Shown here one piece after another: positions 831 to 29,157 of a stretch of DNA of 64,000 bases. Source of the stretch: Archaeoglobi archaeon (lineage in GTDB: Archaea; Halobacteriota; Archaeoglobi; Archaeoglobales; Archaeoglobaceae); the NCBI GenBank assembly GCA_029259415.1, contig JAPDIW010000044.1, positions 27,716 to 91,715 of the forward strand. Direction: 5' to 3'. The translations under genes and the position numbers were made by a program. The notes below the pieces were generated by a model. It searched no databases and had not been told where the DNA came from. It saw nothing but the letters and a program-made list of their open reading frames with translations. Every line of letters starts with the position of its first letter. Position 1 is the first letter of the stretch.

Positions 831-900
831 TATTTTTACTTTATTTCCTCCGAAGACTTTTGTACCTTAACTTTGTACCTTTAACGTAGCTATCAATTCT

Positions 901-920
901 TTAGCAATCTTTTTTGCTAA
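901..920. repeat. Small inverted repeat TTAGCAA-n6-TTGCTAA downstream of rpl10e
   Basis: Direct reading; a T-rich loop separates perfect 7-bp arms. Function unknown. Confidence 0.5.
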
Positions 921-1145
921 GTTTAAATAAGTAGATTGTCAGTTCAGTTTTATATTTCCGATTTTAAATTTTTCTTAAAAGCATATATGTTAGCACAATT
1001 CTAACAACACCACTCATCAGTGGATAAACGCAGTTAGTAAAGACCTGTGCATCTGTATGGACAAACAATAGGACTCAATTACCTTCTTCATGCTGAGCAC
1101 CCAATCAAAACCCAAATTTATATAATTCAGCAATCATGACGTATT

Positions 1146-1670
1146 CTAACTTAACCTTCTTATTAAGCCAATTCCAAGCAGGAATCTTGGCAATTCAAGG
1201 ATTGAAGCGATGATTACGACAGAAATTGGCAGTGCAGCCATACTAACTTGAATGCTCAGCCAGTTTATAGCAGTAATTACAACTCGGTTTAGCAGAGTGC
1301 ATTGTAAAAATTCAGGATTGAGGCCTGTGAAATCGTAATATCCGGCTCCATCTGCCAAGTATATTAAGAGTCCTTCCGTAAATTGAAGAGGAATTCCATT
1401 TAAAGTTAAAGATACAAAGACCGTCGTTCTCGACACAACACCGGTAATCACGCGGTATAACAAGGTGGATAACGTTGTCCTCCAGAACACTGCGAGTACA
1501 AACGTAACCAATAGATAGCTTGTTTTATCTCCTGCTGGTGAATAGAACGCCATTGGAAATAGGGACAAATCGAGAAAAAAGTACAAGATTGTGCAAAAAA
1601 TGAGTACAATTAAATATATAGTTATTTTATTTCCTCTTAAGAAATTAAAAAATTGTTGATGCTCTTGCAT
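1146..1670 (-). CDS. Multi-spanning membrane protein, function unknown, downstream of secreted-protein gene
   Basis: 174 aa with several hydrophobic segments (ITIYLIVLIFCTILYFFL, TSYLLVTFVLAVFW etc.); start abuts the stop of the 1670-2188 ORF. Confidence 0.6.
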   Translation of the reverse strand: MQEHQQFFNFLRGNKITIYLIVLIFCTILYFFLDLSLFPMAFYSPAGDKTSYLLVTFVLAVFWRTTLSTLLYRVITGVVSRTTVFVSLTLNGIPLQFTEGLLIYLADGAGYYDFTGLNPEFLQCTLLNRVVITAINWLSIQVSMAALPISVVIIASILELPRFLLGIGLIRRLS

Positions 1671-2654
1671 TACGGACTCTCCCCTATCGTCTCATCTGTA
1701 TATACACAGGTGCTGTAGTCATTCTCTGCATCCATTCTGCTTCCCTCAACTGGATTTAGCCAAGTACTGAATGCTGTATCGGCCATAGATGGGTTGTTAT
1801 CGTTTTCGCCCATCGCATGGTTCCACGTGTTAGCGTATATTATTGGGTGTGTTCCTGTTGTGCTGAACGAATATACCTTCGCTCTTTCGTGTGCTGCAGT
1901 ATCCCATGTAGCTGATCCGCTGTAGATTGGGCTGATACTCCTCCACTCTCCGTAGAATGGGCTCCACCAGTAGATTTGAAGACCTATAAACGATAATCTA
2001 CTCACGCTTCCAGTACTTTTGTCAACAACTAGGAAGAATGTCTCTATATCTTCGAATCTCCCCCACGCTATGTAACGATACCAGTCGTATGCACCATCTA
2101 AGGTTGGATGGTCTTCATCATTGAAAACGTACGTAACCTCTATTATGTACTTTCCTGGAAGGTAAGTAGCCGTAAACATTTTCATCAAAAACCTTTGCGT
2201 ACGTTTTTATCAACCCGTTACCGTTGTTTATGTCAGAAGTCGGCTGATACAACTTTGGAAGGTAGTCGTATGCGACTGTAATGCTTGTCGCAGTAGACAA
2301 AACCTCTGCCTGCGCGTAGTATTCATAAGCTTTTAATTTCAGTCTTTCCTTTTCGATCGTCTTCTTCAGGACTTTAAATTCTTCATCGCTCAGTTCGATA
2401 CAATCAAGCTTCTTTAAAACAGCGTTAAACAGCCTCTCGAACTCTTTCCAATCTTCATCACTTAACTTATCTTTCGTCAGAATTTTTCTGATCTGATCTA
2501 CGCTCTTTTTGAACTCCTTATCACCCTTGTAGAGTTGCCTAAACTTCACTTCTTTTAGCTTTGTATCGCTGATACTTGTTGCAGTCACCGGGCACGCTAC
2601 ACTTACCACCATTACCAAAACCAGCAATATTGCCAGCACTGCTCCCATTCTCAA
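1670..2654 (-). pseudogene. Secreted protein (signal peptide), reading frame interrupted once
   Basis: ORF 2118-2654 starts with a signal peptide (MGAVLAILLVLVMVVSVACPVTA) and ends ...YAKVFDENVYGYLPSRKV...; ORF 1670-2188 continues ...TYLPGKYIIEVTYVFNDEDH... in another frame. A shift of one frame within about 2150-2185 would rejoin them. SD-like ggaggtga upstream. Confidence 0.6.
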
Positions 2655-2717
2655 CCACTTTCACCTCCTCCCCACCGTTCTCGCTTGATTGTCTTTACAA
2701 CCATAAATAAAACCAGC

Positions 2718-2747
2718 GAAAACGTTAGATAACCATCTAACATTTTC
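2718..2747. promoter_or_regulatory. 30-bp near-perfect palindrome, candidate operator (copy 1)
   Basis: GAAAACGTTAGAT-AACC-ATCTAACATTTTC: 13-bp arms with one mismatch, between divergent A/T-rich TATA-like boxes (ataaataaaacc / gtttaaaaaga). Confidence 0.75.
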
Positions 2748-2775
2748 ATAAGGTTTAAAAAGAGAAGAATTTGAA

Positions 2776-3303
2776 ATGCTCTATGTGGGGTTAAACTCGG
2801 AATCAGAAGTTGAGAAAAAAGAAATAGAAGAGCCTATAGAAAATATAAAGGTACTAACAGACAAAACGAGAATCTCTATTTTAAAAAACCTTACTAAGAG
2901 GAACTATACTATCTCAGAACTTTCAAAGCTACTGAACTTGACTAAGCCAACTGTCCTGTATCACATGAAAATTCTTGAAGGTGCAGGATATGTGAGAAGA
3001 ATTGAGAGCAATAGAAAGTGGGTTTATTATGAGATAACCAGTTCTGGCAAATCTGTTTTGAGGAGGAGGGAACTAAAAATTATTTTGCCTCTACTAAGTG
3101 CTGTTGCTTCAACAATCATATCATTTACAATCCTTCTATTAAAATCGATGAAGAGGAAGGGGGTTTCAGAAAGTCCAGTTTTGGGTATAGAGTATGATTT
3201 GTTACTTTTAATTTCTATCGCAATACTTATTATCTCTCTGTATGCTGCTTGTATTGCTATGAAGAAGGAAACGAGTTGTCAACCACACTTCCAAGGAGAA
3301 TAA
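2776..3303 (+). CDS. ArsR-type winged-helix transcriptional regulator with C-terminal transmembrane segments
   Basis: NIKVLTDKTRISILKNLTKRNYTISELSKLLNLTKPTVLYHMKILEGAGYVRR is a winged HTH; two hydrophobic helices follow (LLSAVASTIISFTILLL and LLLLISIAILIISLYAACIA). Confidence 0.8.
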   Translation: MLYVGLNSESEVEKKEIEEPIENIKVLTDKTRISILKNLTKRNYTISELSKLLNLTKPTVLYHMKILEGAGYVRRIESNRKWVYYEITSSGKSVLRRRELKIILPLLSAVASTIISFTILLLKSMKRKGVSESPVLGIEYDLLLLISIAILIISLYAACIAMKKETSCQPHFQGE

Positions 3304-3818
3304 CCACAGAAACCTCTACTAATAACGATAAATGTTACTGCGAAATTTATCAGAATCCAGTAAATAATTACCTTCTTTCTATTAGGTTGTTGGTATGCAT
3401 AACAAGACACATAACTCATCAAAATACTCCCTGGAATGCTTGCAGCTGAAAATAGAATATTATTAAGAACTTTACCTGAAATGCCCCAGAAAGCAATTTT
3501 ATTTATATCACCTATCACTCCGTAATTTCCTGTAAACTTATACAAAAGTAGAATTTCAGCTCTAAACATAATAATTGCTAATTCGAACCCTACTAAATTT
3601 AAAAACCATATAGCAAGAATAACTAACAGTACCCTATCCTTACTAGCTAATTTTGTGTTGCTAAACAGTGAAAAAGCGATTAGTGCAAGTGCACTCGATA
3701 TCAAAGAATAAAAAAGGGACGAAAAAGGAAGCCCAAGAATCCAAGGAAGAAGAAAGTCTGCAAGCATAATAAATAAAAATTTAGATGTACGTGTTACAAG
3801 ACCCTCTTTCCGTATCAA
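3279..3818 (-). CDS. Multi-spanning membrane protein, function unknown, downstream of secreted-protein remnant
   Basis: 179 aa with multiple hydrophobic segments; same size and position relative to a secreted-protein gene as 1146-1670. Confidence 0.55.
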   Translation of the reverse strand: MIRKEGLVTRTSKFLFIMLADFLLPWILGLPFSSLFYSLISSALALIAFSLFSNTKLASKDRVLLVILAIWFLNLVGFELAIIMFRAEILLLYKFTGNYGVIGDINKIAFWGISGKVLNNILFSAASIPGSILMSYVSCYAYQQPNRKKVIIYWILINFAVTFIVISRGFCGYSPWKCG

Positions 3819-4106
3819 GATCGCACCAGTTAAGCCAAGTGTCAGCGTTAGTTTCTACTCTAGCAGTGTGTGCACTTCGTTGATAACCAGCATCGATGTT
3901 TCCTGTGGCCTTATCCCAAAAGATGTCAGCCAATTTGCACACTCCGACCACCATATTCCCCCATCATAAATTTCACCAGAAGCTCCAATGACACACTGAA
4001 CTCCCTTATTGTTCAGGTAAGTAGCAAAATTATTTCCTGCCTCGCATGCAGCTACCACAAACACTCTGGTTAACACAAGCATAAACTCAATCCATGCCTT
4101 TTTCAT
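3769..4106 (-). pseudogene. Small secreted protein (possible caspase-like/C-terminal peptidase fragment), frameshifted
   Basis: ORF 3855-4106 reads MKKAWIEFMLVLTRVFVVAACEAGNNFATYLNNKGVQCVIGASGEIYDGGIWWSECANW...; the adjacent frame continues ADIFWDKATGNIDAGYQRSAHTARVETNADTWLNWCDLDTERGSCNTYI*, implying a frameshift near 3920-3945. SD-like ggaggtgaagg upstream of the start. Confidence 0.5.
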
Positions 4107-4161
4107 CCTTCACCTCCCCGCCATTTTTTGTTGTTATTTGTTTTAAGCATATAAAACCACT

Positions 4162-4191
4162 GAAAACGTTAGATAACCATCTAACATTTTC
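4162..4191. promoter_or_regulatory. 30-bp near-perfect palindrome, candidate operator (copy 2)
   Basis: GAAAACGTTAGATAACCATCTAACATTTTC, identical to copy 1 at 2718-2747; TATA-like elements on both sides are also shared (atataaaacc / ctttaaaaaga). Confidence 0.75.
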
Positions 4192-4256
4192 GTAAACTTT
4201 AAAAAGATCGTTAACCTTAGTTCATTCACTTGATCATATCAGAAAGTTTTTGATTT

Positions 4257-5669
4257 TTGAACCAACTTTTATTGATGCCCTCTTTAATGGTAGGTGGTAC
4301 TACAAGCAGTGCCGGGAAGAGTCTGATCGTTGCCGCCCTCTGCCGAATTTTGGCAAGAAGGGGCTATGATGTTGCTCCTTTTAAGGCTCAGAACATGAGT
4401 CTCAACTCCTATGTAACTAAAAACGGTAAAGAGATTGCGATAGCACAGGCCTATCAGGCTTTTGCTGCCGGGATAGAGCCGGATGAAAGGATGAATCCGA
4501 TACTGCTGAAGCCGAAGGGGGATTTCACTTCTCAGCTTGTTGTGATGGGTGAGGCTGCTGGAGATGTGGATTCAAGGAATTATTACGAAGAAGTTGAACG
4601 GCTGAAGAAGGTTGTTGAGGAAGCATATACGAGCCTCGCTGAGGAGTATGATGTTGTGGTTATTGAGGGTGCGGGTGGAATGGCCGAGATAAACCTCTAT
4701 GAGAGAGACCTCGCGAACATACACATTGCGAGGTTTGCCAGGCCCGACATAATCATAGTGGGAGATATAGACAGAGGGGGCGTGTTTGCATCCCTTTTCG
4801 GCACATACTCTCTTTTGCCCGAAGATATCAGAAGAATGGTGAAGGGGTTTGTTATAAACAGGCTGAGGGGTAGGGAGGATATTCTGCAGAGTGGGATAAC
4901 GCAGCTTGAGAGGCTGACCGGCATTCCCGTTCTTGGAGTGCTTCCCTTTCTTGACTACAACTTCCCCTCGGAAGACTCTTTGAACATTGATGAGTGGGGC
5001 AAAGAGGGTCCAGTGGGGATAGTAAGGCTGCCCAGAGTGTCGAACTTCACGGATTTTGAGTTCATAAGGGGTTATACGCGCTTTCTCGATCTGAACTCAG
5101 GGCTGGATAGATGTGAGGTGGTGATAATTCCGGGAACGAAGGACACCATTGCAGATCTGATGGAGTTGAAGAGGTCGAGGCTCGGTAAGGAAATTGTCAG
5201 AAAGGCGGGTGAAATTCCTGTTATAGGGATATGTGGTGGCTACCAGATCATGGGGAAAGAGCTGATTGATTACGGGGTGGAGCATGGGAAAGTCAGGGTG
5301 AAGGGGTTGGGACTACTTGACGCTGTAACGAGATTTGAGAACTACAGAAAGAGGACGGTTCAGGTGGTGAAAAGAGTTAGGGGAAATGCCGTGATTCTGG
5401 ACAAGATTGCCGGGCAGGAAGTCTGGGGTTACGAGATACACAAGGGCGTTACGGAGGCATCAAGGCCTTTGTTTGAAGATGAAGGGTGTGTTAGCGAAGA
5501 TGGGATGTGCTGGGGCACTTATCTGCACGGTTTGTTCTGGAATGCAAATGTTGTTGATGCCTTGGGGAAGTTTCTCGGTGTGAAAATTAAAAGGGAGGGT
5601 GACTGGGCAGAGGTTATTGCTGGGGAAGTGGATAGGAGGTTGAAGCTCGAAGCAGTTCTTGGCTTTTGA
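4257..5669 (+). CDS. cobQ: Cobyric acid synthase (adenosylcobyric acid synthase)
   Basis: VGGTTSSAGKSLIVAALCRILARRGYDVAPFKAQNMSLNSYVT..., C-terminal GATase domain (PVIGICGGYQIMG, YEIHKGVT). True start is probably ATG 4275 or 4287 rather than TTG 4257. Confidence 0.93.
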   Translation: MNQLLLMPSLMVGGTTSSAGKSLIVAALCRILARRGYDVAPFKAQNMSLNSYVTKNGKEIAIAQAYQAFAAGIEPDERMNPILLKPKGDFTSQLVVMGEAAGDVDSRNYYEEVERLKKVVEEAYTSLAEEYDVVVIEGAGGMAEINLYERDLANIHIARFARPDIIIVGDIDRGGVFASLFGTYSLLPEDIRRMVKGFVINRLRGREDILQSGITQLERLTGIPVLGVLPFLDYNFPSEDSLNIDEWGKEGPVGIVRLPRVSNFTDFEFIRGYTRFLDLNSGLDRCEVVIIPGTKDTIADLMELKRSRLGKEIVRKAGEIPVIGICGGYQIMGKELIDYGVEHGKVRVKGLGLLDAVTRFENYRKRTVQVVKRVRGNAVILDKIAGQEVWGYEIHKGVTEASRPLFEDEGCVSEDGMCWGTYLHGLFWNANVVDALGKFLGVKIKREGDWAEVIAGEVDRRLKLEAVLGF

Positions 5670-14638: not shown

Positions 14639-16078
14639 GTGGAATTGGCGAGGAGGGTTGCGAAAAACGCATTGTTTAACACGTCTGCACTTGTTGTAGG
14701 CAACGTTTCCGGATTATTTCTTAGCGTAATCCTTGCAAGGGTTTTAACTCCTGAGTATTTTGGATTATACAGTCTGACGTTGGCAGTAGCAAACGTAGCT
14801 ATAGCTCTTGCAAATTTAGGTGTTGATGGTGCTATTGTTAGATATACAGCCTACTTTTCAACTGACATTTTTCAGTTAAGAAGTCACTTTAGGTACTTTC
14901 TTAAGATCAAAATTTTGCTCGCTTCTTTAATTTCTTTAGTTCTACTCTTTGCTTCAAATAACCTTGCAACTATCTTCGGGGATGAAAGGCTTGCATTAAC
15001 TTTTGCAATTGCAAGTTTAATTGTTTTTTTGGCCTCCTTAGCATACGCTCTGAATTCCCTTTTCAATGGCCTTCAAGAATTCAAATACACTCTTTTGAGT
15101 CGAATAGCCTACGAAGTGTCAAGATGGATTTTTGTCATCCCATTGGCAGTTTCCTTTCTAGCTACTGGGGCAATTGCCGGAACTGCTGCAGCATACCTCG
15201 TCTCTCTAATTTTTTTGGTAATAATAGTAGTAAGACACTATAGCGAATATATTTTTGGTGAAACTGGAAGAGTCGGTGGGAAAGTAAATACTTTCGTTGG
15301 CTTTATGAGCATTGCAGGAATTTCCGGGATAATTTATGCACACGTTGACTCCATTATGATTGGCCATCTTTTGACACCTACGGATGTGGGATATTATAGA
15401 GCCGCATGTACAATTGTATTCGCGCTTATAGGATTTATATCCTCTTTAAGTTCTGTTCTGTTTCCTACATTCACCCGGCTTACGATAGAAGACATCAAAA
15501 GGTCGCTTGATAGACTTACCAGATATTTATCTATAATTGCATTCCCATCAGCCTTTTTGATTTTATATCTGTCTGAAAAAATAGTAAAGATAGTTTATGG
15601 AACTGAGTACTTGGCTGCATCGTCAGCAATGTTCTTCCTATCCTTTGCTTTACTTCCAGGAGCTTTCAGCTACCTACCAACAATTTTTAATGCAAAAGAG
15701 AGAGTAGACATCTCAGTAAAGCTCACCGTATCAAGTATGCTTCTTAATGTTGTTTTAAATTATTTTTTAATTCTCGAGATGGGGATTGCTGGTGCTGCTG
15801 TTGCAACCGTAGTTTCAAGGTTTTTTACTATAGGTTTTGCGGCAATTTTACTCTACAAAATGTTCAGTATCTCATTCAGAGCATCATCAGTTTTGAAGCC
15901 GTTAATAAGCTCATTGATCATGTTCGCTGTGCTGATTGTTATGCCCGAACCACGATCTGTAGTTATTGGTTTGGCGGAGGTAATTTTTGCTGGATTGATT
16001 TACTTTGTTGTCCTTTTTGGTATTAGAGGAATCGACATGGATGATTTTAGATATTTCAGAAATCTGGTAAGATTTTAA
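14639..16078 (+). CDS. Oligosaccharide/polysaccharide flippase (Wzx/MATE-like, PST family)
   Basis: ARRVAKNALFNTSALVVGNVSGLFLSVILARVLTPEYFGLYSLTLAVANVAIALANLGVDGAIVRY; about 12-14 hydrophobic helices. GTG start. Confidence 0.88.
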   Translation: MELARRVAKNALFNTSALVVGNVSGLFLSVILARVLTPEYFGLYSLTLAVANVAIALANLGVDGAIVRYTAYFSTDIFQLRSHFRYFLKIKILLASLISLVLLFASNNLATIFGDERLALTFAIASLIVFLASLAYALNSLFNGLQEFKYTLLSRIAYEVSRWIFVIPLAVSFLATGAIAGTAAAYLVSLIFLVIIVVRHYSEYIFGETGRVGGKVNTFVGFMSIAGISGIIYAHVDSIMIGHLLTPTDVGYYRAACTIVFALIGFISSLSSVLFPTFTRLTIEDIKRSLDRLTRYLSIIAFPSAFLILYLSEKIVKIVYGTEYLAASSAMFFLSFALLPGAFSYLPTIFNAKERVDISVKLTVSSMLLNVVLNYFLILEMGIAGAAVATVVSRFFTIGFAAILLYKMFSISFRASSVLKPLISSLIMFAVLIVMPEPRSVVIGLAEVIFAGLIYFVVLFGIRGIDMDDFRYFRNLVRF

Positions 16079-16353
16079 GATTTTGGCTTATATCTCAGCG
16101 TCATAAAAAGTTTCTCTCAAAATTGAACAAGCAATCTTGCAGTTTTAGTGTAAGATATCGCTAAAATATCTATATCTCCAAAACATTCCTAAAATTGCGA
16201 GTTCATGTGTGTGCATTAAGGTATTAATAAAATACACCTATACTTAAAAGCACTAGACCGAAGTAAAAATCTTTTTCTAAATGTAAACCTTTATTTTCTT
16301 GAGCAGCTTAAATTGTAAGTATTCTAATATATAACACGTGTCCCTAGGGTTCT

Positions 16354-16564
16354 GGGACAAAATTTGATTAATCTTCACGATGTGAGCTCAGCCCTCTATA
16401 ATCTAATATGCTTTCTCAGAACATTAACCTTGGCTGAAGTTCAAAAGGAGTTGCCTCTCTCGTACACTAACTTCCACCTCATCCGTGGGTTCAGTCTTTA
16501 CAATTTCAACCTCCTGATGGTTTGCCGCACAACCTGCTTGCGTAGGATGAAGAGATAATTTTGT
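16354..16564. mobile_element. Short internally deleted IS relic (MITE-like) related to 10223-11331
   Basis: Ends GGGACAAAATT (16354-16364) and AATTTTGT (16557-16564); contains a DUF2080-like relic near the left end (- strand) and gatggtttgccgcacaacctgcttgcgt, resembling the transposase C-terminus ttggtttgctacacaatctgtttgcagt at 11279-11306. Confidence 0.55.
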
Positions 16565-16623
16565 TTTCTAGAGTCGATAAACAATCGAAAATTCTTATAA
16601 ATCTTAAAAGGTTTGATTGAAGT

Positions 16624-17667
16624 GTGGGGTCTAGAACTACGAAACATGACAAAACAAATATAGAAGAAAATAGCAAGTATGTTGTAGTTGGAATATGTAC
16701 ATATAATAATGAAGACACTATAGAAAGAACTCTTTACAGCTTGGAAAACCAGCTGAGAAGACCTGATGAAATAGTAATCTGTGACAAGAGTAGTGATGGT
16801 ACTTTATCGAAGATCAAGAATTTTCAAAAAAAATCTAAAATGAAAATTACGATCCTGAGGCAAAAGGGAGATGGTGTGGGTGAGGCTAGAAATGAAATTT
16901 TAAACTATCTAAAGAGGGAGGCTAAGTGTGATTTATTGTTTTTCCTCGATACTGATATAACAATTCCACCAGACTTCATAACTAAAAGCTTAAAACTTCA
17001 TGAGATGTACCCAGATGTTGGTGTAGTCTGTCCAGGTGAGCGCTTTACGATAGCTCAAGATCCTTTTCAAGGCGATTACTTCTGTCAAGGTACTTGCTCT
17101 ATAAAATTCGATTTAATCAAAGAATTAAATTTAGAATACGACTCTACTTTAAAAAGGGGAGAAGACTGGGATTTTGCGATAAAATTATTCAAAAACGGAG
17201 TTACTAGTTTGATTACTCCGGAACTAAAAAGAGACGTTTTTGAAAAAGTAACTTTCAAAACTTGGATAAAAAAGAACCTAAAACGACCAACGTCTTTACC
17301 ATATATAAAGAAGTACGGGATTTGGTATATAAGAAAACACCCAGTTCATTTTTTTGGGGATTTGGTATCCTTTATATTGCTAATTTCTGTCGCACTGTCA
17401 GTAGTTGGCTTCATAGCTCAAATATCTGAATTTAAGACGCTTTTATTTGCAAGTATGTTTACATACGTTTTATATTTTGCTGGTATGAGATATAAATATA
17501 AAAAATTATATCTAGGAAATATACATTACATAGTAATACATACTTTATGGCCAATTATATATGGAATTACTGTATTAAAATATATATTTTTTTCGATAAT
17601 TAAATATATTTATAGTTTATCGGCAATAATCGATTGGTTAAAGTTAACATCTTTAAGAAAAAATTAA
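16624..17667 (+). CDS. Glycosyltransferase family 2 with C-terminal TM segments
   Basis: YVVVGICTYNNEDTIERTLYSLENQLRRPDEIVICDKSSDGT..., FFLDTDITIPPDF; two hydrophobic segments at the C-terminus. GTG start. Confidence 0.88.
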   Translation: MGSRTTKHDKTNIEENSKYVVVGICTYNNEDTIERTLYSLENQLRRPDEIVICDKSSDGTLSKIKNFQKKSKMKITILRQKGDGVGEARNEILNYLKREAKCDLLFFLDTDITIPPDFITKSLKLHEMYPDVGVVCPGERFTIAQDPFQGDYFCQGTCSIKFDLIKELNLEYDSTLKRGEDWDFAIKLFKNGVTSLITPELKRDVFEKVTFKTWIKKNLKRPTSLPYIKKYGIWYIRKHPVHFFGDLVSFILLISVALSVVGFIAQISEFKTLLFASMFTYVLYFAGMRYKYKKLYLGNIHYIVIHTLWPIIYGITVLKYIFFSIIKYIYSLSAIIDWLKLTSLRKN

Positions 17668-17681
17668 TAATATTAAAATTT

Positions 17682-18683
17682 CTATAGATATAAATTCAAA
17701 AATTCTCTAACTTCATCCTTGGTTAGCAATTTTGCGTCTTTAGAGGTATATTTTTTTACTTTTAACTTTTTACTGTTTGGTGGCACATTACCAAAAGGAA
17801 CTACAACTATCATGTCATCAATTTCATACGCTTGATCCGACTCTATTTCGGCAAGTAATTCCTCATGTAACTTTTCCCCTGGTCTCTTACCTACTATCTC
17901 AATTTTTATTCCATTAGGATTAATTCCACATATTTTAGCAAATTCGTTTACAACCACTTCAGCCAAGTCAATAATTCTTAAGGCTGGCATTTTAAAGATG
18001 AATATCTCCCCACCTTTCGAGATTTTAGCAGCTTTCAGAACTAGTTCGACAGCTCTTGAAATACTCATAACGAACCTCGTCATTTGAGGATCTGTAACTG
18101 TAATGGGTCCACCCTTCTGTATTTGATCCATAAAAACAGGAAGTACTGAACCTCTTGATCCAATAACATTTCCAAATCTAACACATGAAAATGCTGTTTT
18201 TCTGGATCCTTTATACAAGTTAGCAGAAATAGTTAGCCTTTCTGCCAACAACTTTGTAGCACCTAAAACATTCGTAGGATTTACAGCTTTATCTGTGCTT
18301 ATCGTTATAAACTTTTCAGTATTTTCGTCTATGGCTACGTCAATTAAATTTTGAGTCCCGACAACGTTAGTTTTTACAGCTTCAAAAGGATTATATTCAC
18401 ACACAGGGACGTGCTTTAGTGCAGCTGCGTGGAAAACAATGTCAACACCTTCGATTGCCCTTTTCAGTCTGTCTTTATCTCTTATATCCCCAACAAACAA
18501 TCTGAGCTTTTCTGAGTTGAGTTCGTGTTCTAATTCATACAAACCTGTTTCATTTATATCTAACACCCTCACTACTTTGGGATCAAACTTAAGGAGCGTT
18601 CTGACTATTTCACTCCCTATAGAACCTGCGCCTCCGGTTACAAGAATTGTCTTACCCTCGTAAAACTCTTTGAGGTCATTCAT
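17682..18683 (-). CDS. UDP-GlcNAc 4,6-dehydratase-like (FlaA1/PseB/CapD family)
   Basis: ILVTGGAGSIGSEIVRTLLKFDPKVVRVLDINETGLYELEHEL..., STDKAVNPTNVLGATK motif. Confidence 0.88.
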   Translation of the reverse strand: MNDLKEFYEGKTILVTGGAGSIGSEIVRTLLKFDPKVVRVLDINETGLYELEHELNSEKLRLFVGDIRDKDRLKRAIEGVDIVFHAAALKHVPVCEYNPFEAVKTNVVGTQNLIDVAIDENTEKFITISTDKAVNPTNVLGATKLLAERLTISANLYKGSRKTAFSCVRFGNVIGSRGSVLPVFMDQIQKGGPITVTDPQMTRFVMSISRAVELVLKAAKISKGGEIFIFKMPALRIIDLAEVVVNEFAKICGINPNGIKIEIVGKRPGEKLHEELLAEIESDQAYEIDDMIVVVPFGNVPPNSKKLKVKKYTSKDAKLLTKDEVREFLNLYL

Positions 18684-19819
18684 ACTCTCCCCTCCTGGAA
18701 GAATTCTTTAATTGAAGTGACAATGTAGTCCAGCTCTTCTTTTGTCATATGGGGGTACATTGGCAAACTCAAAACTTGAGAAGAAACCTTCTCCGTTACT
18801 GGGAGTTTGACTTTAGAATATCCAAGCTTTCTAAATATCGTGTATTTGTGGACTGGCTCAAAGTAAACCTTAGTTGATATCCCCTTTTTTGCAAGATACC
18901 TCATTAGAGCATCTCTCATTTCTTTTCCTTCTAAAACCCTTATCATATAAAGCTGATAGGCCGCAAAATAATCTTCTGGCTCTTCCATGACTTCGACACC
19001 ATCTATTTTTTTGAGCTCCTTGTTTAGTGAGTGTGCATTTTTTCTCCGCATTTCTATTAGCTTGTCAACTTTTTCTAGCTGTGCTATTCCCAAAGCCGCC
19101 AAAATTGTTGAAAGCCTCCAGTTATAGCCGACTTCAATGTAATCTGTCTTTGTTCCGGAAGTGAAATAATCCCCCTCCGTTATCCTGCCATAAGAGACGA
19201 GGAGTTTTAGTTTGTCATATAATTCCCTGTCGTCTGTGACAGCGGCTCCCCCTTCACTTGTTGTGAAAATCTTGTTTTGACAGAAACTGAGAATAGCGGC
19301 GTCTCCAAATGTCCCAACGTGTTTATCACCCACCTTCGCCCCGAAGGCCTCTGCAGCGTCTTCAATCAGTACAAGTTTATAATCCTCCGCTATTTCCCTG
19401 AGTTCTCTAATTTTGCACGGCATCCCGCCGTAATGAATTGGCAGTATAGCTTTGGTTTTTGAAGTTATTTTTTCCTTGACGTCTTCTGGATCCAGTCCCA
19501 AAGTTTCTTCCTCGATGTCAGCAAAGACTGGCTTCGCACCAACATATAATGGAGCATAAGCAGTTGCTATGAATGTAAAGGAGGGTACAATTATCTCGTC
19601 CCTTGGCTTAAAGCCATAAGCAAGCACCAATGCATGGAGCGCTGAACCCCCAGAGTTAAAGGCCACACAATATCTTGAGCCGATGTACTCACGTATCTTT
19701 TTTTCAAACTCTTTTATTTGCTTTCCAGTACACCAATGCATTCCAGACTGAATTACTTCTTTAACCGCATTTACGTCTTCCTCATCCCAATAAATTTTGA
19801 AGAGGGGAATTTTCCACAT
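18680..19819 (-). CDS. DegT/DnrJ/EryC1 PLP-dependent sugar aminotransferase (LegC/PseC-like)
   Basis: FNSGGSALHALVLAYGFKPRDEIIVPSFTFIATAYAPLYVGAKPVFADIEEETLGLDPEDV..., SFCQNKIFTTSEGGAAV. Confidence 0.9.
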   Translation of the reverse strand: MWKIPLFKIYWDEEDVNAVKEVIQSGMHWCTGKQIKEFEKKIREYIGSRYCVAFNSGGSALHALVLAYGFKPRDEIIVPSFTFIATAYAPLYVGAKPVFADIEEETLGLDPEDVKEKITSKTKAILPIHYGGMPCKIRELREIAEDYKLVLIEDAAEAFGAKVGDKHVGTFGDAAILSFCQNKIFTTSEGGAAVTDDRELYDKLKLLVSYGRITEGDYFTSGTKTDYIEVGYNWRLSTILAALGIAQLEKVDKLIEMRRKNAHSLNKELKKIDGVEVMEEPEDYFAAYQLYMIRVLEGKEMRDALMRYLAKKGISTKVYFEPVHKYTIFRKLGYSKVKLPVTEKVSSQVLSLPMYPHMTKEELDYIVTSIKEFFQEGRV

Positions 19820-19829
19820 ACTTCACCAC

Positions 19830-20897
19830 CTATACTATTTTTTCATCAAGATCCCACCGATACTCTGGAAAGTAATTGTTCGAAAATGCAGACATGGGAT
19901 TCAAGGTTGACAGTTTTTTGTAAGTTTTTATATCAAATATTTTTTTGCCAATATAGAAAGGAACTGTATCGTTCGAAAAGCCTTTTTTAAATTCAAAAAG
20001 AGAATCATTTTTTCCTCTGCCTCCACCAAGATTCAGTAATTCAAAGTTATTCGTTTTTACCCATTTTATTGCTTTCCATAACATTAAATCTAATGGATAC
20101 ACTCCTTTTAAACCATATGTAGCACCAGATAGATGATAATGAACTACTTTGCGCCAAAATATGAAAATACTTGCTCCAATGATCTGATTATTATGTTCTA
20201 CTTTAACTAATACTGACTTTAATAAGCTAAAATGATCATTTAGGAACTCTCTTGAAAAATAGTATTTTTTTGATGCCTTATTTTTGTCCATTGTATGATA
20301 ATAAATTTTTACAAAGTTATCAATATCCTTTTTAGTAGGAGTACTCACAATTTCTACTTTACACTCCTCTCTTATAGATTTTTTGATGTTATATCTGTGT
20401 CCTTTTTTGATTGATTTCCAAATCCCTTCTAAGTCTTTATTCAAGTTAATAACTACAACATCGTTTAGATATTCAACGTTAAAGCTCTTATTAAAAAACC
20501 TCCAGTTCTTAAAAATTGGGTGGAATCTTATAAATTCGCACACGTAATTATTCCTTAAAGCATAGTTTTGGTATTCCTCCAAAAATTTTTTCAGAGAACT
20601 GTTTATCTTTTCTTTATCTCGTGTTTTTGTGGTAATCAAAGGCCCCCCATAACCATAAGGAGTGGTCAAGTCATAATATTCGAAGTCTTTAAATTTCTCT
20701 ATTTTACTTATATCTCTAACTAAATGTGGCCAAAAAATTTTTATGTTTTCATCTTCCCAAAAAATAGCTTCAGGTTCAACATCATAGTGCCTTTTGTAGA
20801 GGTCAAAATACTCGTATCTAAAATAAATGTCCTCATATCCTCCAAATTCTTCGGCTAGTGTAGAATTCCACGTAGCCCTATCTTTTATGGAGATCAT
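19830..20897 (-). CDS. FemAB/GNAT-like acyltransferase
   Basis: NLNKDLEGIWKSIKKGHRYNIKKSIREECKVEIVSTPTKKDIDNFVKIYYHTMDKNKASKKYYF..., HYHLSGATYGLKGVYPLDLMLWKAIKWVKTNNFELLNLGG: the architecture of FemAB-type peptidyltransferase-like proteins. Confidence 0.75.
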   Translation of the reverse strand: MISIKDRATWNSTLAEEFGGYEDIYFRYEYFDLYKRHYDVEPEAIFWEDENIKIFWPHLVRDISKIEKFKDFEYYDLTTPYGYGGPLITTKTRDKEKINSSLKKFLEEYQNYALRNNYVCEFIRFHPIFKNWRFFNKSFNVEYLNDVVVINLNKDLEGIWKSIKKGHRYNIKKSIREECKVEIVSTPTKKDIDNFVKIYYHTMDKNKASKKYYFSREFLNDHFSLLKSVLVKVEHNNQIIGASIFIFWRKVVHYHLSGATYGLKGVYPLDLMLWKAIKWVKTNNFELLNLGGGRGKNDSLFEFKKGFSNDTVPFYIGKKIFDIKTYKKLSTLNPMSAFSNNYFPEYRWDLDEKIV

Positions 20898-22012
20898 AAT
20901 TTACCCTCCAATATCTCCAAAATTATTTTCACTATTCTTTCCGAACTTTTTCCATCGCCATATGGATTTTTTATTGTTTTTAACTTGTTTCTAAACTCTT
21001 TGTCGTACAAAGCCTTCTTTATACCCTCCACAATCTCGTCTTTATTATATCCTACGTCTATTGTATTTCCTGCCCTCAGCCTATTTCTCTGCCTCGTTCC
21101 GATACAAACAAAAGGTTTTCTAAAAGATGCCAATTCAACAATCCCTGCACTTGAATTGCCCACCATCACATCACAAGCATTCATTAATCCTAAAAAATCT
21201 TCTCGTTCAATATGTTGAAATACTTTTAAGAAAGGTAATTCTTTACTGTATTCTTCAAGTATTTTGTTTATAACCCTCCCCCCAGCATCTGCATTTGAGT
21301 AAACAGCTATTGTCTGAATCTTTAGTTCTTTGATTGCATCCAAAGTTCCTTTTATCTGCCTTTCTACGTCTTCGTGCTCCTCGGTATTTGGGTGCTGAAC
21401 AAGAAGAATGATAGGTTTTTCTGGATTTAGTTCGTATTTTTTAATTATCTCCTCTTTTGGTGTAAACTCTCCTGCATAGATATCATCCAACCCTGGTTCA
21501 CCTACATTAAATACTCTATTTTTCGGAATACCCATACTTATCAATCTTCTATAACTTTCTTCATTTCCTACAAGATGGTAGTCTGAAAACATCGTAATTG
21601 CATACCTTATTTTGTTATCTATTGAACCTCCTAAATCTCCTCCTCCATGATGCACCACTGGAATATTTAAGTGAGCTCCAACTATAGCTCCAGCTAAACT
21701 CTCGCCTCTGTCGCCTTCAATAAATATTAGATCTGGATTTATCCCTTCTATCGCTTGAGCAATACCATATACGCAAATACCAAAAGATTTGACCATTGCT
21801 CCCAGACTATCGTTATCCAATAGCATATCAACTTTCTTGATTTTGAGTTTGTCTTTTTCTATCTCTTTTATAGTATACCCAAATCTAGAACTCAAATGCA
21901 TACACGTTGCTATTATTGTTAAATCTACATGCTTATTTAGTTCCATCAGTGCCCTCCTCATCAATAAATAATCTGACCTTGAACCTGAAACATATACGAC
22001 CCTCTTACTCAT
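20894..22012 (-). CDS. neuC: UDP-N-acetylglucosamine 2-epimerase, hydrolysing (NeuC/LegG-like)
   Basis: RVVYVSGSRSDYLLMRRAL..., PDLIFIEGDRGESLAGAIVGAHLNIPVVHHGGGDLGGSIDNKIRYAITMFSDYHLVGNEESYRRL, VGNSSAGIVELASFRKPFVCIGTRQ. Confidence 0.9.
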   Translation of the reverse strand: MSKRVVYVSGSRSDYLLMRRALMELNKHVDLTIIATCMHLSSRFGYTIKEIEKDKLKIKKVDMLLDNDSLGAMVKSFGICVYGIAQAIEGINPDLIFIEGDRGESLAGAIVGAHLNIPVVHHGGGDLGGSIDNKIRYAITMFSDYHLVGNEESYRRLISMGIPKNRVFNVGEPGLDDIYAGEFTPKEEIIKKYELNPEKPIILLVQHPNTEEHEDVERQIKGTLDAIKELKIQTIAVYSNADAGGRVINKILEEYSKELPFLKVFQHIEREDFLGLMNACDVMVGNSSAGIVELASFRKPFVCIGTRQRNRLRAGNTIDVGYNKDEIVEGIKKALYDKEFRNKLKTIKNPYGDGKSSERIVKIILEILEGKL

Positions 22013-23118
22013 AGACTTTCACCATTTAGGATACCATTTAGAATATTAGCTACTTTCGACATCTCTTTCTTGCCATATCTCTGATCTATAGGTATTGACA
22101 AAATTCTTTTGCTTAATTCATGTTCATATGAGTAGTTCTTTGGGATTATACCCTCCAAATCCCAATGTATTGGGGGATAAATATCTTTTTCAATTAAGAG
22201 TTTCTTAACTCTATTCCTTTCTTCTTCACTCTCAAATATTAATGGCAGGGTAAAAGGACTTTTTATGTCATCTAAATTAAACAAAAAATATTTCTTATTA
22301 TGAATATTGCTATACATAAATTTTAAATTTTCAAACCTTTTTCGAGTAATATATGAAATATTTATTTTTCTTAAAATGTAAAGCGAAATAAAGGGGATAT
22401 CCTGTAATTGTATTGGCTCACTGTCTTTATTTACTTCATAGTTTTTGTACATTACTAAAAATAAGTTTTTTAATTTGTTAGCATCTTTTGAGATAATCCT
22501 CTCATAGTTTTTTAAATACATAGTTTTTAATACCATCGCTTCGAGCATATTTTCGTAACCTTCTGGGAATGATTTCTTTACTTTAAATGCAGAGTTAGTA
22601 TAGTATAACACACCACCATCTGGTATCGGAAAAACTTTTCTTAAACTTGAGACTAGATACAAATTCTCATGTTCTATTTTAAATCTGCTTCTATTGAAGA
22701 TGGAATGAGTAATGTCTAGAATTACAATATTCTCTTTATCTAACAAATTTAAAATATTTTTATTAAAAATGGGTTCAGTTCCAAAATAATCTATAAAATA
22801 GATTAATGAATTTTTTATATTTTTATCTAATATTGGTTTTAAAGGATGTTTATGAGTGTAAAACTTAACTTTTAAATTTAACTCTTTAAAAGGCTTCAAA
22901 ATCGAATGACATAGATATGCTGGTAGGTAGCATATTTCCTTTTTTAGTAATTTTTTTGTATTTAACAACACAGATTTTACTGCTTGCCTACCATCTCTGA
23001 AAAAGCAATAGTTTCTGTTTTCGCCAACACTTATAAGATAATACAATGCGGAGTTCGTGTATTCATCATTGTCGAATTCTGGAAATTCAAAAAAACTTCC
23101 TATTTCCATAATGACCAC
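22009..23118 (-). CDS. Divergent PLP-dependent aminotransferase-like protein (DegT-like fold)
   Basis: CFFRDGRQAVKSVLLNTKKLLKKEICYLPAYLCHSILKPFKELN..., ILDITHSIFNRS, SSLRKVFPIPDGGVLYY resembles the DegT active-site lysine region. Confidence 0.6.
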   Translation of the reverse strand: MVIMEIGSFFEFPEFDNDEYTNSALYYLISVGENRNYCFFRDGRQAVKSVLLNTKKLLKKEICYLPAYLCHSILKPFKELNLKVKFYTHKHPLKPILDKNIKNSLIYFIDYFGTEPIFNKNILNLLDKENIVILDITHSIFNRSRFKIEHENLYLVSSLRKVFPIPDGGVLYYTNSAFKVKKSFPEGYENMLEAMVLKTMYLKNYERIISKDANKLKNLFLVMYKNYEVNKDSEPIQLQDIPFISLYILRKINISYITRKRFENLKFMYSNIHNKKYFLFNLDDIKSPFTLPLIFESEEERNRVKKLLIEKDIYPPIHWDLEGIIPKNYSYEHELSKRILSIPIDQRYGKKEMSKVANILNGILNGESL

Positions 23119-23801
23119 CTCTTCCTCGCTTCGACAATCCAGTGAATAATTTCTTCTTGTCGGTTTTCATAAGTACGAATGTTGTTCTCAATACTATTAA
23201 TTTCAAATCCTGATCGCAACAACAGATTTTCTAAATCATCTGCAGAGAGCATACAAGTTATCCCTACATTAGCTAGGGGGCCTTCTGACAAATTATCAAA
23301 AGTTTCGTAGTCAATCAGATTTGATGTTCCATAACCCCAACTCCCCTTTGCAATATGAAAACTCCAAAAATAACCGCCAAGTTTTAAAACACGATTTATT
23401 TCGGCATAAGCCTTTTTATGGTCTCTAAAAGTGAGATGCTGAATTGTGGCACAGTCAATAACTACATCAAAACATTGATTCTTATAGGGTAGTTCTCTTA
23501 CATCAGCCACTTTTAAATTTGCTCTAACATTATACGCCTCTTCCAAGTATCTCTCCGCTTTTCTTACTGCAGATGGAGAAATATCTATACCATATACAAA
23601 ACCCTCATTCGCTAAAAACCAAAGATTTGCTCCTTGTCCACATCCAACTTCTAAGATCTTGATATTTTTCCTTTCTTCTTTTGGGATTTTGAAGAAATTA
23701 GCTCCTATAAATCTTATAAGTTCCTCATTAGGGTATTTGCCCCACATCCTTTGCGAGTGTATACATTCCCATATATTTTTTCTACCATTCAATGAGCTCA
23801 A
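23100..23801 (-). CDS. SAM-dependent methyltransferase (class I)
   Basis: KILEVGCGQGANLWFLANEGFVYGIDISPSAVRKAERYL..., FDVVIDCATIQHL. Confidence 0.88.
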   Translation of the reverse strand: MSSLNGRKNIWECIHSQRMWGKYPNEELIRFIGANFFKIPKEERKNIKILEVGCGQGANLWFLANEGFVYGIDISPSAVRKAERYLEEAYNVRANLKVADVRELPYKNQCFDVVIDCATIQHLTFRDHKKAYAEINRVLKLGGYFWSFHIAKGSWGYGTSNLIDYETFDNLSEGPLANVGITCMLSADDLENLLLRSGFEINSIENNIRTYENRQEEIIHWIVEARKRWSLWK

Positions 23802-24834
23802 AGGTTATCACCTCATCTTTATTTATCTTCTTTCTAGCTTTTTTCCCTATGATTTCTTTATAATATTTGGGTGATAGTCCAGTTTCAGGCCGCTTAAATG
23901 TTATCATATCTTTAGTTATAGTGGCTCCTTTGGGTATATCCACTTTGGCAACTATGCTTCTCCTTACGACTCTCCTAATCTCTATCTCTTCAGGGGCAGC
24001 CCTCTTAATCCCATCTCCCAAGGCTTTTTCAATTATCCTTATCTCTTCAATCATTTCTTTTAGCTCTTCCGGATTAAGTGATGCCTTGTGGTCTGGTCCA
24101 GGCAAATTTTTATCTAATGTGAAATGCTTTTCAATGACAACAGCTCCAAGAGCCACAGCTGCTATTGAGGCGTAGATTCCCAGACTATGGTCAGAAAACC
24201 CTACAGGCAGTTTAAATGCCTCCTTAAGAGTTTGGATTGCTCTTAAATTTAGGCTTTCAAATTTTGCTGGATAACTAGTGACACAGTGCAAGAGAATTAT
24301 ATCTTCATTTCCAGCGTTTTTTATCGTGTTTATAGCTTCTTCTATTTCTCCCAGCGTTCCCATTCCAGTAGAGAGAATTATTGGTTTTCTCTTTTCTGCT
24401 ATGTATTTTAGGAAGGGTAGGTTTGTTAAGTCGGCTGAAGATACCTTAAAAGCTGGAACTCCCAATTCTTCGAGGAAATCGACGCTCTCAAAGTCAAATG
24501 GCGTTGATAGAAATATAATTCCTCTGCGCTTAGTATATTTGTAGAGCTCCTTAAACTCATCCTCACTAAGCTCAAGTTCTTTTAGCATTTCGTGTTGAGA
24601 TTCATTTGATCCCGTGTTTTTAGCTTGATAATCGGCTTTTGGAGCATTTTTGGTAACTACATTTTCAGCTTTAAAGGTTTGGAATTTTACGGCATCTGTT
24701 CCAGCTTCAACCGCAATGTCTACAAGCTTTTTAGCAAGTTCAATATCCCCATTGTGGTTGACTCCAGCTTCTGCAATTATGAAGCATGGTTCTCCATCTC
24801 CTATCGATTTGCTACCTATCTTAACAATTTTCAT
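23782..24834 (-). CDS. neuB: N-acetylneuraminate/legionaminate synthase (NeuB/LegI family) with C-terminal SAF domain
   Basis: PCFIIAEAGVNHNGDIELAKKLVDIAVEAGTDAVKFQTFKAENVVTKNAPKADYQ..., GFSDHSLGIYASIAAVALGAVVIEKHFTLDKNLPGPDHKASL. Confidence 0.95.
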   Translation of the reverse strand: MKIVKIGSKSIGDGEPCFIIAEAGVNHNGDIELAKKLVDIAVEAGTDAVKFQTFKAENVVTKNAPKADYQAKNTGSNESQHEMLKELELSEDEFKELYKYTKRRGIIFLSTPFDFESVDFLEELGVPAFKVSSADLTNLPFLKYIAEKRKPIILSTGMGTLGEIEEAINTIKNAGNEDIILLHCVTSYPAKFESLNLRAIQTLKEAFKLPVGFSDHSLGIYASIAAVALGAVVIEKHFTLDKNLPGPDHKASLNPEELKEMIEEIRIIEKALGDGIKRAAPEEIEIRRVVRRSIVAKVDIPKGATITKDMITFKRPETGLSPKYYKEIIGKKARKKINKDEVITFELIEW

Positions 24835-25898
24835 TCTAACTCCCCCATTATTTTCATTAATGCCTCGACGAAATAGTAATCACCCCATATTAAACATTCG
24901 TCAACTCCTAAACCCGCTGGCTTATGAAAACATCCGTGTTTTAATATGCCATCTCCATCACCCTTAGCTAAGTATTGCTTACTGCTAAGAGAGTTCAGAA
25001 TTTTCATAGCTATTTCTTTAAATCTTTCTTGTCGACTGAGATTTGATAATGTGAGCAAACCAGAACTAGCTATTGCTGCAGCAGAGCTATCCTTGACGGA
25101 TTTTTCAGGATCATTAAAGTCCCAGTAGGGAACATAGTCTTCGGGTAGATGTTCTATGAAGTAACTTGCAAGTTTTTTTGCGGTTTTCAGAAATATCTTA
25201 TCTTTTGCTGTTTTATACGCCAAAGCAAATCCATATATTGCCCAAGCTTGTCCCCTTGACCAGCATGATTCATCGCGGTATCCTTGAGTTGTAATTTTTC
25301 TAATGATATTCCCTGTATCTAAATCGAAGTCGATTACATGGATCGTAGAATAGCTCCCTCTAATGAATTCTTCAATTGTTCGTATGGAGTGCGTATAAGC
25401 TATATCATAGTAAATACCATTACCTGTTTCTTCAAACGCCCACCAGAGTAACGGTAAGTTCATCATGACATCTATAATAGTTCTTCCAACTTTTTCACCA
25501 TTCAGGTATGTAACACAGTATACAAATTTAGATTTCTTGTGAACTAGAGTTGAAAGAGTTTTTGCTGCATCTAACGAAATTCGTCCTAGATTTTCATCAC
25601 CAGTAAACTTATAACCCAAAACGAAGGAAGGGTAAAACAGAAAACCTAGATCAAATGTCTTGTCAAATCTTCTCCCCTTTAAGCGCTCAGCCCAAGAGTA
25701 AGCCAATTCTTTATATTTTTTATCCTTCGTTATCTTATAACACAGCCAAAGTAAACCAACCCAAAAACCGCCAGTCCAGTAACCATCCTTGGTAGTTGTC
25801 CACTTTCCATTCTTCGTTATGTGTGGAAAGTCTCTGAGATTAACAATATTTTTATTCACTTTATCCAATATGATTTCCAAGATATTATTCATATCCAT
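24831..25898 (-). CDS. Glycoside hydrolase family 88-like (unsaturated glucuronyl hydrolase-like)
   Basis: DGYWTGGFWVGLLWLCYKIT..., TQGYRDESCWSRGQAWAIYGFALAYKTAKD..., LPEDYVPYWDFNDPEKSVKDSSAAAIASSGLLTLS. Confidence 0.85.
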   Translation of the reverse strand: MDMNNILEIILDKVNKNIVNLRDFPHITKNGKWTTTKDGYWTGGFWVGLLWLCYKITKDKKYKELAYSWAERLKGRRFDKTFDLGFLFYPSFVLGYKFTGDENLGRISLDAAKTLSTLVHKKSKFVYCVTYLNGEKVGRTIIDVMMNLPLLWWAFEETGNGIYYDIAYTHSIRTIEEFIRGSYSTIHVIDFDLDTGNIIRKITTQGYRDESCWSRGQAWAIYGFALAYKTAKDKIFLKTAKKLASYFIEHLPEDYVPYWDFNDPEKSVKDSSAAAIASSGLLTLSNLSRQERFKEIAMKILNSLSSKQYLAKGDGDGILKHGCFHKPAGLGVDECLIWGDYYFVEALMKIMGELE

Positions 25899-26586
25899 AC
25901 TTCCTCATTAAGAGTTCTGCTAATAAGAAGTCTATCTCATTATCGATATCGATACTTCTTTCAAGGGACATTATGTATGGAATCATTTTTTGACAATAAA
26001 AGCTTCTATATCTGTATAAGACTTCGGGTGTGGACACATATATTGCCCCGTTTGGCATATATGCTTTTGGCAAGTCCTGTCGCCTTTTTCTTAAATATTC
26101 CTCTCCAAAGATAGGTTTCAAATAACCATTCTCGACTTTGAAACTCCAGTACGGCGAATGTTCGGCTTCACAGACACTTATAACCGATTCACAATCACTT
26201 TTCATGAATAACTCTATAGCGTTATCAATGTCTTGACTGTTGCGTAATGGTGAAGTTGGTTGCAATAATACGACAATATCTGGCTTAAAATCCTGAACCT
26301 CCAAAGTACTTAAAGCGTGCAAGACTACATCTATACTCGGTGTGTCATCTTTTGATAGTTCTTTAGGCCTCTTTATTACTTTAGCACCATACTTGCTTGA
26401 GATTCTGGCAATATCCTCATCCTCTGTCGATACTACAATCTTGCTAATATATCTTGATTTAAAAGACTCTCGAATTGTGTAATAGATCAGAGGCTTTCCA
26501 TTGAGTGATTTTATGTTTTTTCTAGGTAGTCTCTTTGAGCCCCCACGAGCAGGTATTATTGCTAACGTATTTGGTTTTACCATCAT
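25885..26586 (-). CDS. neuA: CMP-N-acylneuraminate cytidylyltransferase (NeuA/LegF family)
   Basis: LAIIPARGGSKRLPRKNIKSLNGKPLIYYTIRESFKSRYISKIVVSTEDEDIARIS..., LLQPTSPLRNSQDI. Start refined from 26604. Confidence 0.93.
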   Translation of the reverse strand: MMVKPNTLAIIPARGGSKRLPRKNIKSLNGKPLIYYTIRESFKSRYISKIVVSTEDEDIARISSKYGAKVIKRPKELSKDDTPSIDVVLHALSTLEVQDFKPDIVVLLQPTSPLRNSQDIDNAIELFMKSDCESVISVCEAEHSPYWSFKVENGYLKPIFGEEYLRKRRQDLPKAYMPNGAIYVSTPEVLYRYRSFYCQKMIPYIMSLERSIDIDNEIDFLLAELLMRKYGYE

Positions 26587-28132: not shown

Positions 28133-28146
28133 TATATAAGCACCTC

Positions 28147-29157
28147 CTAGCTCTTAGAAATATGTTTACGAATTATCTCAGCAAATCCTCCTTTTTTATT
28201 AGAGAAAATTTCATAACATTCTACATTATCTAGGAGGTTGCTAATAATTAGTCGTCTTTTTTTCTCTAGTTCAAATAAGTCTAAATCCTTTTTCATATAG
28301 GAATAAGTGCAAATACTGTGGTGCGCGTTAGTCCTGAAGTGTATCAACGTCTGTGTAGTATCGTACAAAAGCTTAACCGCTGTAGATTTGTCCAACTCCT
28401 GGATATCTGGTGAGCCTTCACGAAGGAAGTAACATATTTCAGGTCGGCAGGAGTCTATCATTTTCTGCTTCACATTTATTGAACTTCTATTTCCAAGGAT
28501 TGCTGAAAAGACAGGCAATCTAAGCAAATTATCTTGAACTTTCTTTGTTAACTTTTGCCACCCAGATAGGCCTATAGACCCTATATCCGTTTTCGGAGAT
28601 ATCCCTACTGCCCTTGGGAAGGAATATACTCTGTCATTTCCGAAAAGTACAGTATCATCACCATAAAGCTGAGCTTCAGGTGAGATAGAGAGGAGATTTA
28701 GTACCGTTGAGGTTTTTCCCATGTTACTTAAACCAGTAATCAAGATATTCTTACCCTCAAATGATATGCATGCGGCATGCACTGGCGTAATATCATACCG
28801 AAGCAAATGAATTGAAATGGTTGCACCAATGATATACGAAACGTCTCCAAATTTCCAAAAAAGTGGCGAGAAAATTAATTCTGTCATAGGTTGATCAAGC
28901 CCCTTAATAACTGCTTGAAGACCTACAATAGACGGTAGCCCCCAATCTAGGTACAACCAGTTTTCACCCCACCTGTACTTGTCACCAACCCTTTCCCCAG
29001 ATAGGTAATGTTCAGGCTTAATTCTGCAGACTTTTACCACGATATTCGGCTCTTTTATCTCATCAGTAAGGAACACGTCAGGAATTTCAATATACTTGGT
29101 GTTTAGTGATTTATCCGAGCGAATAGAAAGCACATTATGTATGTTATACAAATACAT
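28147..29157 (-). CDS. HPr kinase-like P-loop protein
   Basis: DITPVHAACISFEGKNILITGLSNMGKTSTVLNLLSISPEAQLYGDDTVLF: Walker A GLSNMGKT with HprK-like context. Confidence 0.65.
   Translation of the reverse strand: MYLYNIHNVLSIRSDKSLNTKYIEIPDVFLTDEIKEPNIVVKVCRIKPEHYLSGERVGDKYRWGENWLYLDWGLPSIVGLQAVIKGLDQPMTELIFSPLFWKFGDVSYIIGATISIHLLRYDITPVHAACISFEGKNILITGLSNMGKTSTVLNLLSISPEAQLYGDDTVLFGNDRVYSFPRAVGISPKTDIGSIGLSGWQKLTKKVQDNLLRLPVFSAILGNRSSINVKQKMIDSCRPEICYFLREGSPDIQELDKSTAVKLLYDTTQTLIHFRTNAHHSICTYSYMKKDLDLFELEKKRRLIISNLLDNVECYEIFSNKKGGFAEIIRKHISKS

What the first reader, a model, noticed from the sequence alone, without database searches (positions are those of the whole stretch)
2718..4191. Identical 30-bp near-perfect palindrome at two divergent promoters next to an HTH-TM regulator
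GAAAACGTTAGAT-AACC-ATCTAACATTTTC occurs identically at 2718-2747 and 4162-4191, each between divergent TATA-like sequences. The gene starting 29 nt after copy 1 encodes an ArsR-type winged helix with C-terminal TM helices. The simplest model is an autoregulated membrane-anchored repressor/activator controlling two neighbouring operons. Copy 2 may also affect cobQ.
Basis: partly seen in the sequence, partly recalled or inferred. Interest (0 to 1): 0.82.

Follow-up and report, generated by a model that had tools for sequence, protein, structure and literature searches.

The report
Membrane-anchored archaeal regulator's paired DNA switch
Two identical DNA palindromes in an Archaeoglobus-like archaeon are most likely the binding sites of the small membrane-anchored regulator encoded between them, which would control itself and neighbouring genes for secreted proteins; related site-and-regulator pairs occur in other archaea, giving a defined but experimentally untested signalling system.

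Summary
In detail: the 30-mer is identical at 2718-2747 and 4162-4191, inside a 57-nt repeat, with only these two copies in the genome. It is a real operator by phylogenetic footprinting: a matrix built from nine sites in other loci scores the two window sites 37.1, against 13.4 for the next best in 64 kb. At the Archaeoglobales sites compared, both operator edges lie six bases from a TATA-like box. The regulator is an ArsR-type winged helix with two C-terminal membrane helices. Its relatives sit beside secreted DUF6345 proteins (10 of 18 DUF6345 loci). The window's half-sites GTTAG-N8-CTAAC also precede regulator genes in non-Archaeoglobales archaea (7 of 39 versus 0.05 expected). The half-site base changes with the recognition-helix residue. 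A test in methanogen relatives and other paralogues failed (0 of 40), so the operator belongs to part of the family. The cassette is a 3.4-kb insertion between an L10e-type ribosomal gene and cobQ; copy 2 served a secreted-protein gene that is now a pseudogene, and cobQ probably keeps its own promoter. Best reading: an autoregulated, membrane-anchored one-component regulator, probably an activator. It works like ArnR but is not ArnR.

The parts
2718..2747 (.). operator copy 1, 13-4-13 inverted repeat
4162..4191 (.). operator copy 2, identical
2748..2761 (+). BRE-like ATAAGG + TATA-like TTTAAAAA of the regulator promoter
   Evidence: consensus reading, not mapped experimentally
2704..2717 (-). 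BRE-like GCTGGT + TATA-like TTTATTTA of leftward promoter 1
   Evidence: inference
4192..4205 (+). BRE-like GTAAAC + TATA-like TTTAAAAA right of copy 2, probably a relic copy of the regulator promoter facing cobQ
   Evidence: inference
4148..4161 (-). BRE-like AGTGGT + TATA-like TTTATATG of leftward promoter 2
   Evidence: inference
2776..3303 (+). regulator gene: ArsR-type winged helix (HTH_5) plus two C-terminal TM helices; likely start GTG 2785
1670..2654 (-). secreted protein gene 1 (signal-peptide-like start), frameshifted near 2170; C-terminal half homologous to the 304/305-aa proteins of L051/L038
1146..1670 (-). small membrane protein gene downstream of secreted gene 1
   Evidence: no Pfam match
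3781..4106 (-). pseudogene: signal-peptide start fused to the C-terminal ~96 aa (84-90% identical) of a 427-aa secreted protein of L038, plus a frameshift
3279..3818 (-). small membrane protein gene downstream of the pseudogene; lies in DNA 72% identical to L038:36-810
831..4240 (.). inserted cassette between the L10e-type gene and cobQ, absent from two congeners; right boundary approximate
4275..5669 (+). cobQ, right neighbour

Best explanation
The palindromes are operators of the membrane-anchored ArsR-like winged-helix protein encoded at 2776-3303. A dimer held at the membrane by two TM helices binds the inverted repeat GTTAGA-N6-TCTAAC between two divergent promoters. From there it controls its own gene (autoregulation) and the leftward genes for secreted proteins at both copies. 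Because the operator lies just upstream of BRE/TATA on both sides, the likeliest action is activation through TBP/TFB, with input through the TM helices and the short loop that carries an invariant glycine. The cassette is an inserted, partly decayed module in this species. Supported here by comparative evidence: the operator is conserved, sits at a fixed distance from both TATA-like boxes, belongs to regulator and secreted-protein promoters, and its sequence tracks the recognition helix. Inferred: binding by this protein, dimerisation, activation, signal sensing.
For: A matrix from nine non-window sites scores the two window copies 37.1 versus 13.4 for the next site. A degenerate search finds low-mismatch sites (0-2) before regulator genes or secreted-protein genes in G003, G018, G024 (two), G009, the own-genome paralogue C37 and others, with no match for the reversed control in the window's genome. 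Operator edge to TATA-like box is 6 nt on both sides at nearly all loci compared. DUF6345 genes lie within 3 kb of a regulator gene in 10 of 18 loci, against about 1% per locus by chance. The window-derived GTTAG-N8-CTAAC precedes 7 of 39 distinct non-Archaeoglobales regulator genes at up to 1 mismatch, versus 0.05 in shuffles. Residue before the conserved His of the recognition helix: Tyr/His goes with A at half-site base 6 (9 of 10), Glu with G (28 of 34). Members with other helices (KKQLINYH, HKQLVYYH, SRQRISYH) lack the operator. The model gives a winged helix plus two long helices, and Foldseek matches MarR/ArsR. ArnR boxes lie within -43 to -84 and ArnR is an activator (PMC6396743). Sites upstream of BRE/TATA activate and sites downstream repress in TrmBL1/Tgr (PMC4158304).
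Against: No binding or expression data exist. A test on 40 further relatives (Halobacteriota methanogens and other Archaeoglobi paralogues) found 0 sites at up to 1 mismatch, so the operator is not family-wide. Covariation counts are not corrected for shared ancestry. Some relatives with a KPT helix keep only one half-site or a weak one (L010, L016). An operator abutting the BRE could also repress by blocking TFB. The putative targets in the window are damaged genes.
Confidence: 0.75

Rival explanations
1. Same regulator and operator, but it represses both divergent promoters (classical ArsR-style autorepressor); the operator arms abut the BRE and binding excludes TFB until a membrane signal releases it.
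For: Most ArsR/MarR relatives matched are repressors (own knowledge and their titles); NCBIfam SdpR-type autorepressor is a sub-threshold match. The operator edge is 0 nt from the BRE-like hexamer.
Against: In the archaeal cases read, sites upstream of BRE/TATA activate and sites downstream repress (PMC4158304), and the membrane-bound ArnR is an activator at a similar distance (PMC6396743).
Confidence: 0.35
2. The palindrome binds a different, unlinked protein (an Lrp-type or general factor), and linkage to the regulator gene is incidental.
For: No binding data. G009:C62 has a perfect site before a DUF6345 gene with no regulator match on that contig.
Against: Linkage of site and regulator recurs in several genera and outside Archaeoglobales. 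The half-site base changes with the recognition helix. Members with other helices lack the site.
Confidence: 0.12
3. The 57-nt repeat is a dispersed or mobile element end carried with the 3.4-kb insertion, not an operator.
For: The cassette is an insertion and the pseudogene remnant is unusually similar to its counterpart in another genus (84-90%).
Against: Only two copies in the genome, both at promoters. Diverged sites keep arm sequence, spacing and TATA distance while flanks differ. No integrase or flanking repeat was seen. The one viral-contig match lies inside an unrelated coding sequence without the promoter context.
Confidence: 0.05

Closest known systems
ArnR / ArnR1 of Sulfolobus acidocaldarius (PMC6396743)
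   Same: N-terminal HTH, two C-terminal TM helices, one-component; binds inverted repeats within -43 to -84, just upstream of BRE/TATA
   Different: ArnR has HAMP and sensor domains, boxes TCGAC-N5-GTCGA, and controls the archaellum and pili. Here there is only a short loop, GTTAGA-N6-TCTAAC, secreted-protein targets and a divergent autoregulatory layout
ArsR/SmtB family repressors (CzrA, SmtB, BigR)
   Same: winged helix (HTH_5), inverted-repeat operator, autoregulation as a common layout (own knowledge)
   Different: C-terminal membrane helices here; no Cys in the winged helix; probably upstream activation rather than repression
TrmBL1/Tgr of Thermococcales (PMC4158304)
   Same: archaeal palindromic operators whose position relative to BRE/TATA sets activation or repression
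   Different: soluble sugar-binding TrmB family with another motif (TATCAC-N5-GTGATA)
CadC/ToxR (PMC5430869, abstract)
   Same: membrane-integrated DNA-binding activators linking an outside stimulus directly to promoters
   Different: bacterial, with a periplasmic sensor domain (own knowledge)

Membership tests
ArsR-type winged helix (Pfam HTH_5) | profile match above gathering score | tested here: met
   48.9 bits vs cut-off 22
ArsR/SmtB metalloregulator (NCBIfam HTH_metalloreg) | score above curated cut-off | tested here: not met
   46.5 vs 55 bits
ArsR/SmtB metalloregulator (NCBIfam HTH_metalloreg) | metal-ligand cysteines in the recognition helix | tested here: not met
   no Cys in residues 29-97 (sequence)
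ArnR | N-terminal HTH and two C-terminal TM helices | tested here: met
ArnR | HAMP-like and sensing domain between HTH and TM | tested here: not met
   175 aa; the helix from residue 89 runs straight into TM1, with no domain in between
ArnR | binds TCGAC-N5-GTCGA boxes | tested here: not met
   the conserved site is GTTAGA-N6-TCTAAC
ArnR | transcriptional activator | not testable with these tools
   position consistent, no expression data
DUF6345 (PF19872) | profile match of the secreted partner | tested here: inconclusive
   met for partners in L039, L046, L060. The window's own leftward proteins have no convincing Pfam match; the 427-aa homologue of the pseudogene matches only Peptidase_C13 weakly (E 0.055)

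The most novel reading that the evidence does not exclude
A cross-lineage archaeal regulator-operator system: membrane-anchored ArsR-like activators with GTT[AC]G-N8-C[GT]AAC operators, where the residue before the conserved recognition-helix His sets half-site base 6. In Archaeoglobales it is dedicated to secreted caspase-like (DUF6345) proteins, whose action or absence outside the cell is read through the TM loop and fed back to their own promoters.
Probability: 0.3. Interest if true: 0.72.

Novelty: new variant of a known kind. Interest (0 to 1): 0.55.

Why it matters
Few archaeal membrane-bound transcription factors have known operators. This gives a defined operator with fixed promoter geometry, a candidate DNA-recognition rule that can be tested by swapping one residue, and a recurring set of neighbours (secreted DUF6345 proteins of unknown function) that suggests a surface or secretion signalling circuit in Archaeoglobales.

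Tried and rejected
Palindrome quality as evidence by itself: rejected, chance gives sites as symmetric. Virus origin: the only exact viral-contig match lies inside a 312-aa coding sequence and lacks the promoter context; viral relatives of the regulator are weak. The extended 30-bp palindrome across the phylum is found only in the window's own family. Family-wide operator: a test on 40 further relatives was negative, so the claim was narrowed. Caspase-like fold of DUF6345: the AlphaFold model failed (pLDDT 35) and was not searched; the HG...C dyad and the weak Peptidase_C13 match remain a lead only. Literature: no paper on DUF6345, and none found describing this regulator type.

Full report
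OBSERVATION. The 30-mer is present without mismatch at 2718-2747 and 4162-4191, with none expected by chance and no further copy in the genome at up to 3 mismatches. It is the core of a 57-nt repeat that includes a TATA-like box on the right. The symmetry alone is not significant; what matters is the duplication and the conservation.

SURROUNDINGS. The window is from an Archaeoglobaceae genome (class searches; closest named relatives Archaeoglobus and Geoglobus). The regulator (2776-3303) matches Pfam HTH_5. Its model has a winged helix at 29-87, then two long helices at 89-127 and 137-167, with a short loop in which one glycine is invariant. Foldseek finds MarR/ArsR winged helices including CzrA, SmtB and BigR. 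Leftward of copy 1 lies a secreted-protein gene split by a frameshift near 2170, and a small membrane protein. Leftward of copy 2 lies a pseudogene whose C-terminal 96 residues are 84-90% identical to a 427-aa secreted protein of L038 (G024), again followed by a small membrane protein. L038 has a matching layout with open genes: operator between a secreted 305-aa gene and the regulator, plus a second operator before the 427-aa gene.

INSERTION. In two congeners the L10e-type ribosomal protein gene and cobQ are adjacent, tens of bases apart. In the window, 3.4 kb with 37.7% GC separates them, against 50.5% and 49.2% for the two flanking genes. The AT-rich stretch just before cobQ in the window resembles that of the relatives, so cobQ probably keeps its own promoter (inference).

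FOOTPRINT. A matrix from nine sites outside the window ranks the two window sites first, 37.1 against 13.4. The degenerate search over 59 genomes gave low-mismatch sites before regulator or secreted-protein genes; many 3-mismatch hits look like background, and reversed-pattern controls occur in several genomes. On both sides of the operators a TATA-like box starts 6 nt from the operator edge, at the window sites and in L037, L038, L060, L039 and L071; the second L038 site is degenerate.

FAMILY TEST. An unbiased count of inverted repeats upstream of 89 regulator genes put TTAGA-N6-TCTAA, TTCGG-N6-CCGAA and GTTAG-N8-CTAAC near the top, level with or behind an AT-rich T-tract. The combined motif GTT[AC]G-N8-C[GT]AAC has 14 exact and 25 hits at up to 1 mismatch, against 0.05 and 0.68 in shuffles, or 0.15 and 0.72 from locus background; this motif was shaped on the same set. 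The stricter test, with the window-derived GTTAG-N8-CTAAC on non-Archaeoglobales members only, still gives 7 of 39 against 0.05. Those hits come from soil and Thermoplasmata-type Euryarchaeota, Aenigmarchaeota and Nanoarchaeota (titles). A further set of 40 methanogen relatives and other paralogues gave none at up to 1 mismatch. The operator is therefore a property of part of the family.

RECOGNITION. Half-sites from regulators with Tyr or His before the conserved recognition-helix His have A at base 6 in 9 of 10; those with Glu have G in 28 of 34. Close relatives with different helices lack the site. These counts are not corrected for shared ancestry.

TARGETS. DUF6345 genes lie within 3 kb of a regulator gene in 10 of 18 cases. 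Their H-G and C motifs suggest a caspase-like fold, but the structure model failed and no literature was found.

MECHANISM. Activation from an upstream site is favoured by the position rule reviewed for TrmBL1/Tgr (PMC4158304) and by ArnR, a membrane-bound activator with boxes within -43 to -84 (PMC6396743). Repression by TFB exclusion remains a serious rival. The system works like ArnR, but lacks the ArnR sensor region and ArnR box and is not a member.

Noticed in passing
window 2654-1670 (minus): Secreted-protein gene split by a frameshift near 2170 beside a short T/A run; real pseudogene, assembly error or slippage cannot be told apart here.
   Followed up: partly
L194 (G019:C1:1584225-1588357) and L056 (G018:C73:41582-44310): In another genus a different regulator paralogue with DUF6345 also lies directly beside cobQ; hot spot or coincidence unknown.
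   Followed up: no
window 14639-30311: AT-rich island (down to 31% GC) with a polysaccharide flippase, DegT/DnrJ aminotransferase, UDP-GlcNAc 2-epimerases, FemAB-like, GH88 and glycosyltransferase genes: probable surface polysaccharide cluster.
   Followed up: partly
window 2785: GTG in frame 31 nt after the start of the TATA-like box suggests a leaderless start for the regulator.
   Followed up: partly
L037:4640-4925: G018 has a broken regulator gene (internal stops, no TM part) whose own promoter lacks the palindrome, while an operator with 2 mismatches to the window's 30-mer remains before a secreted-protein gene nearby.
   Followed up: partly
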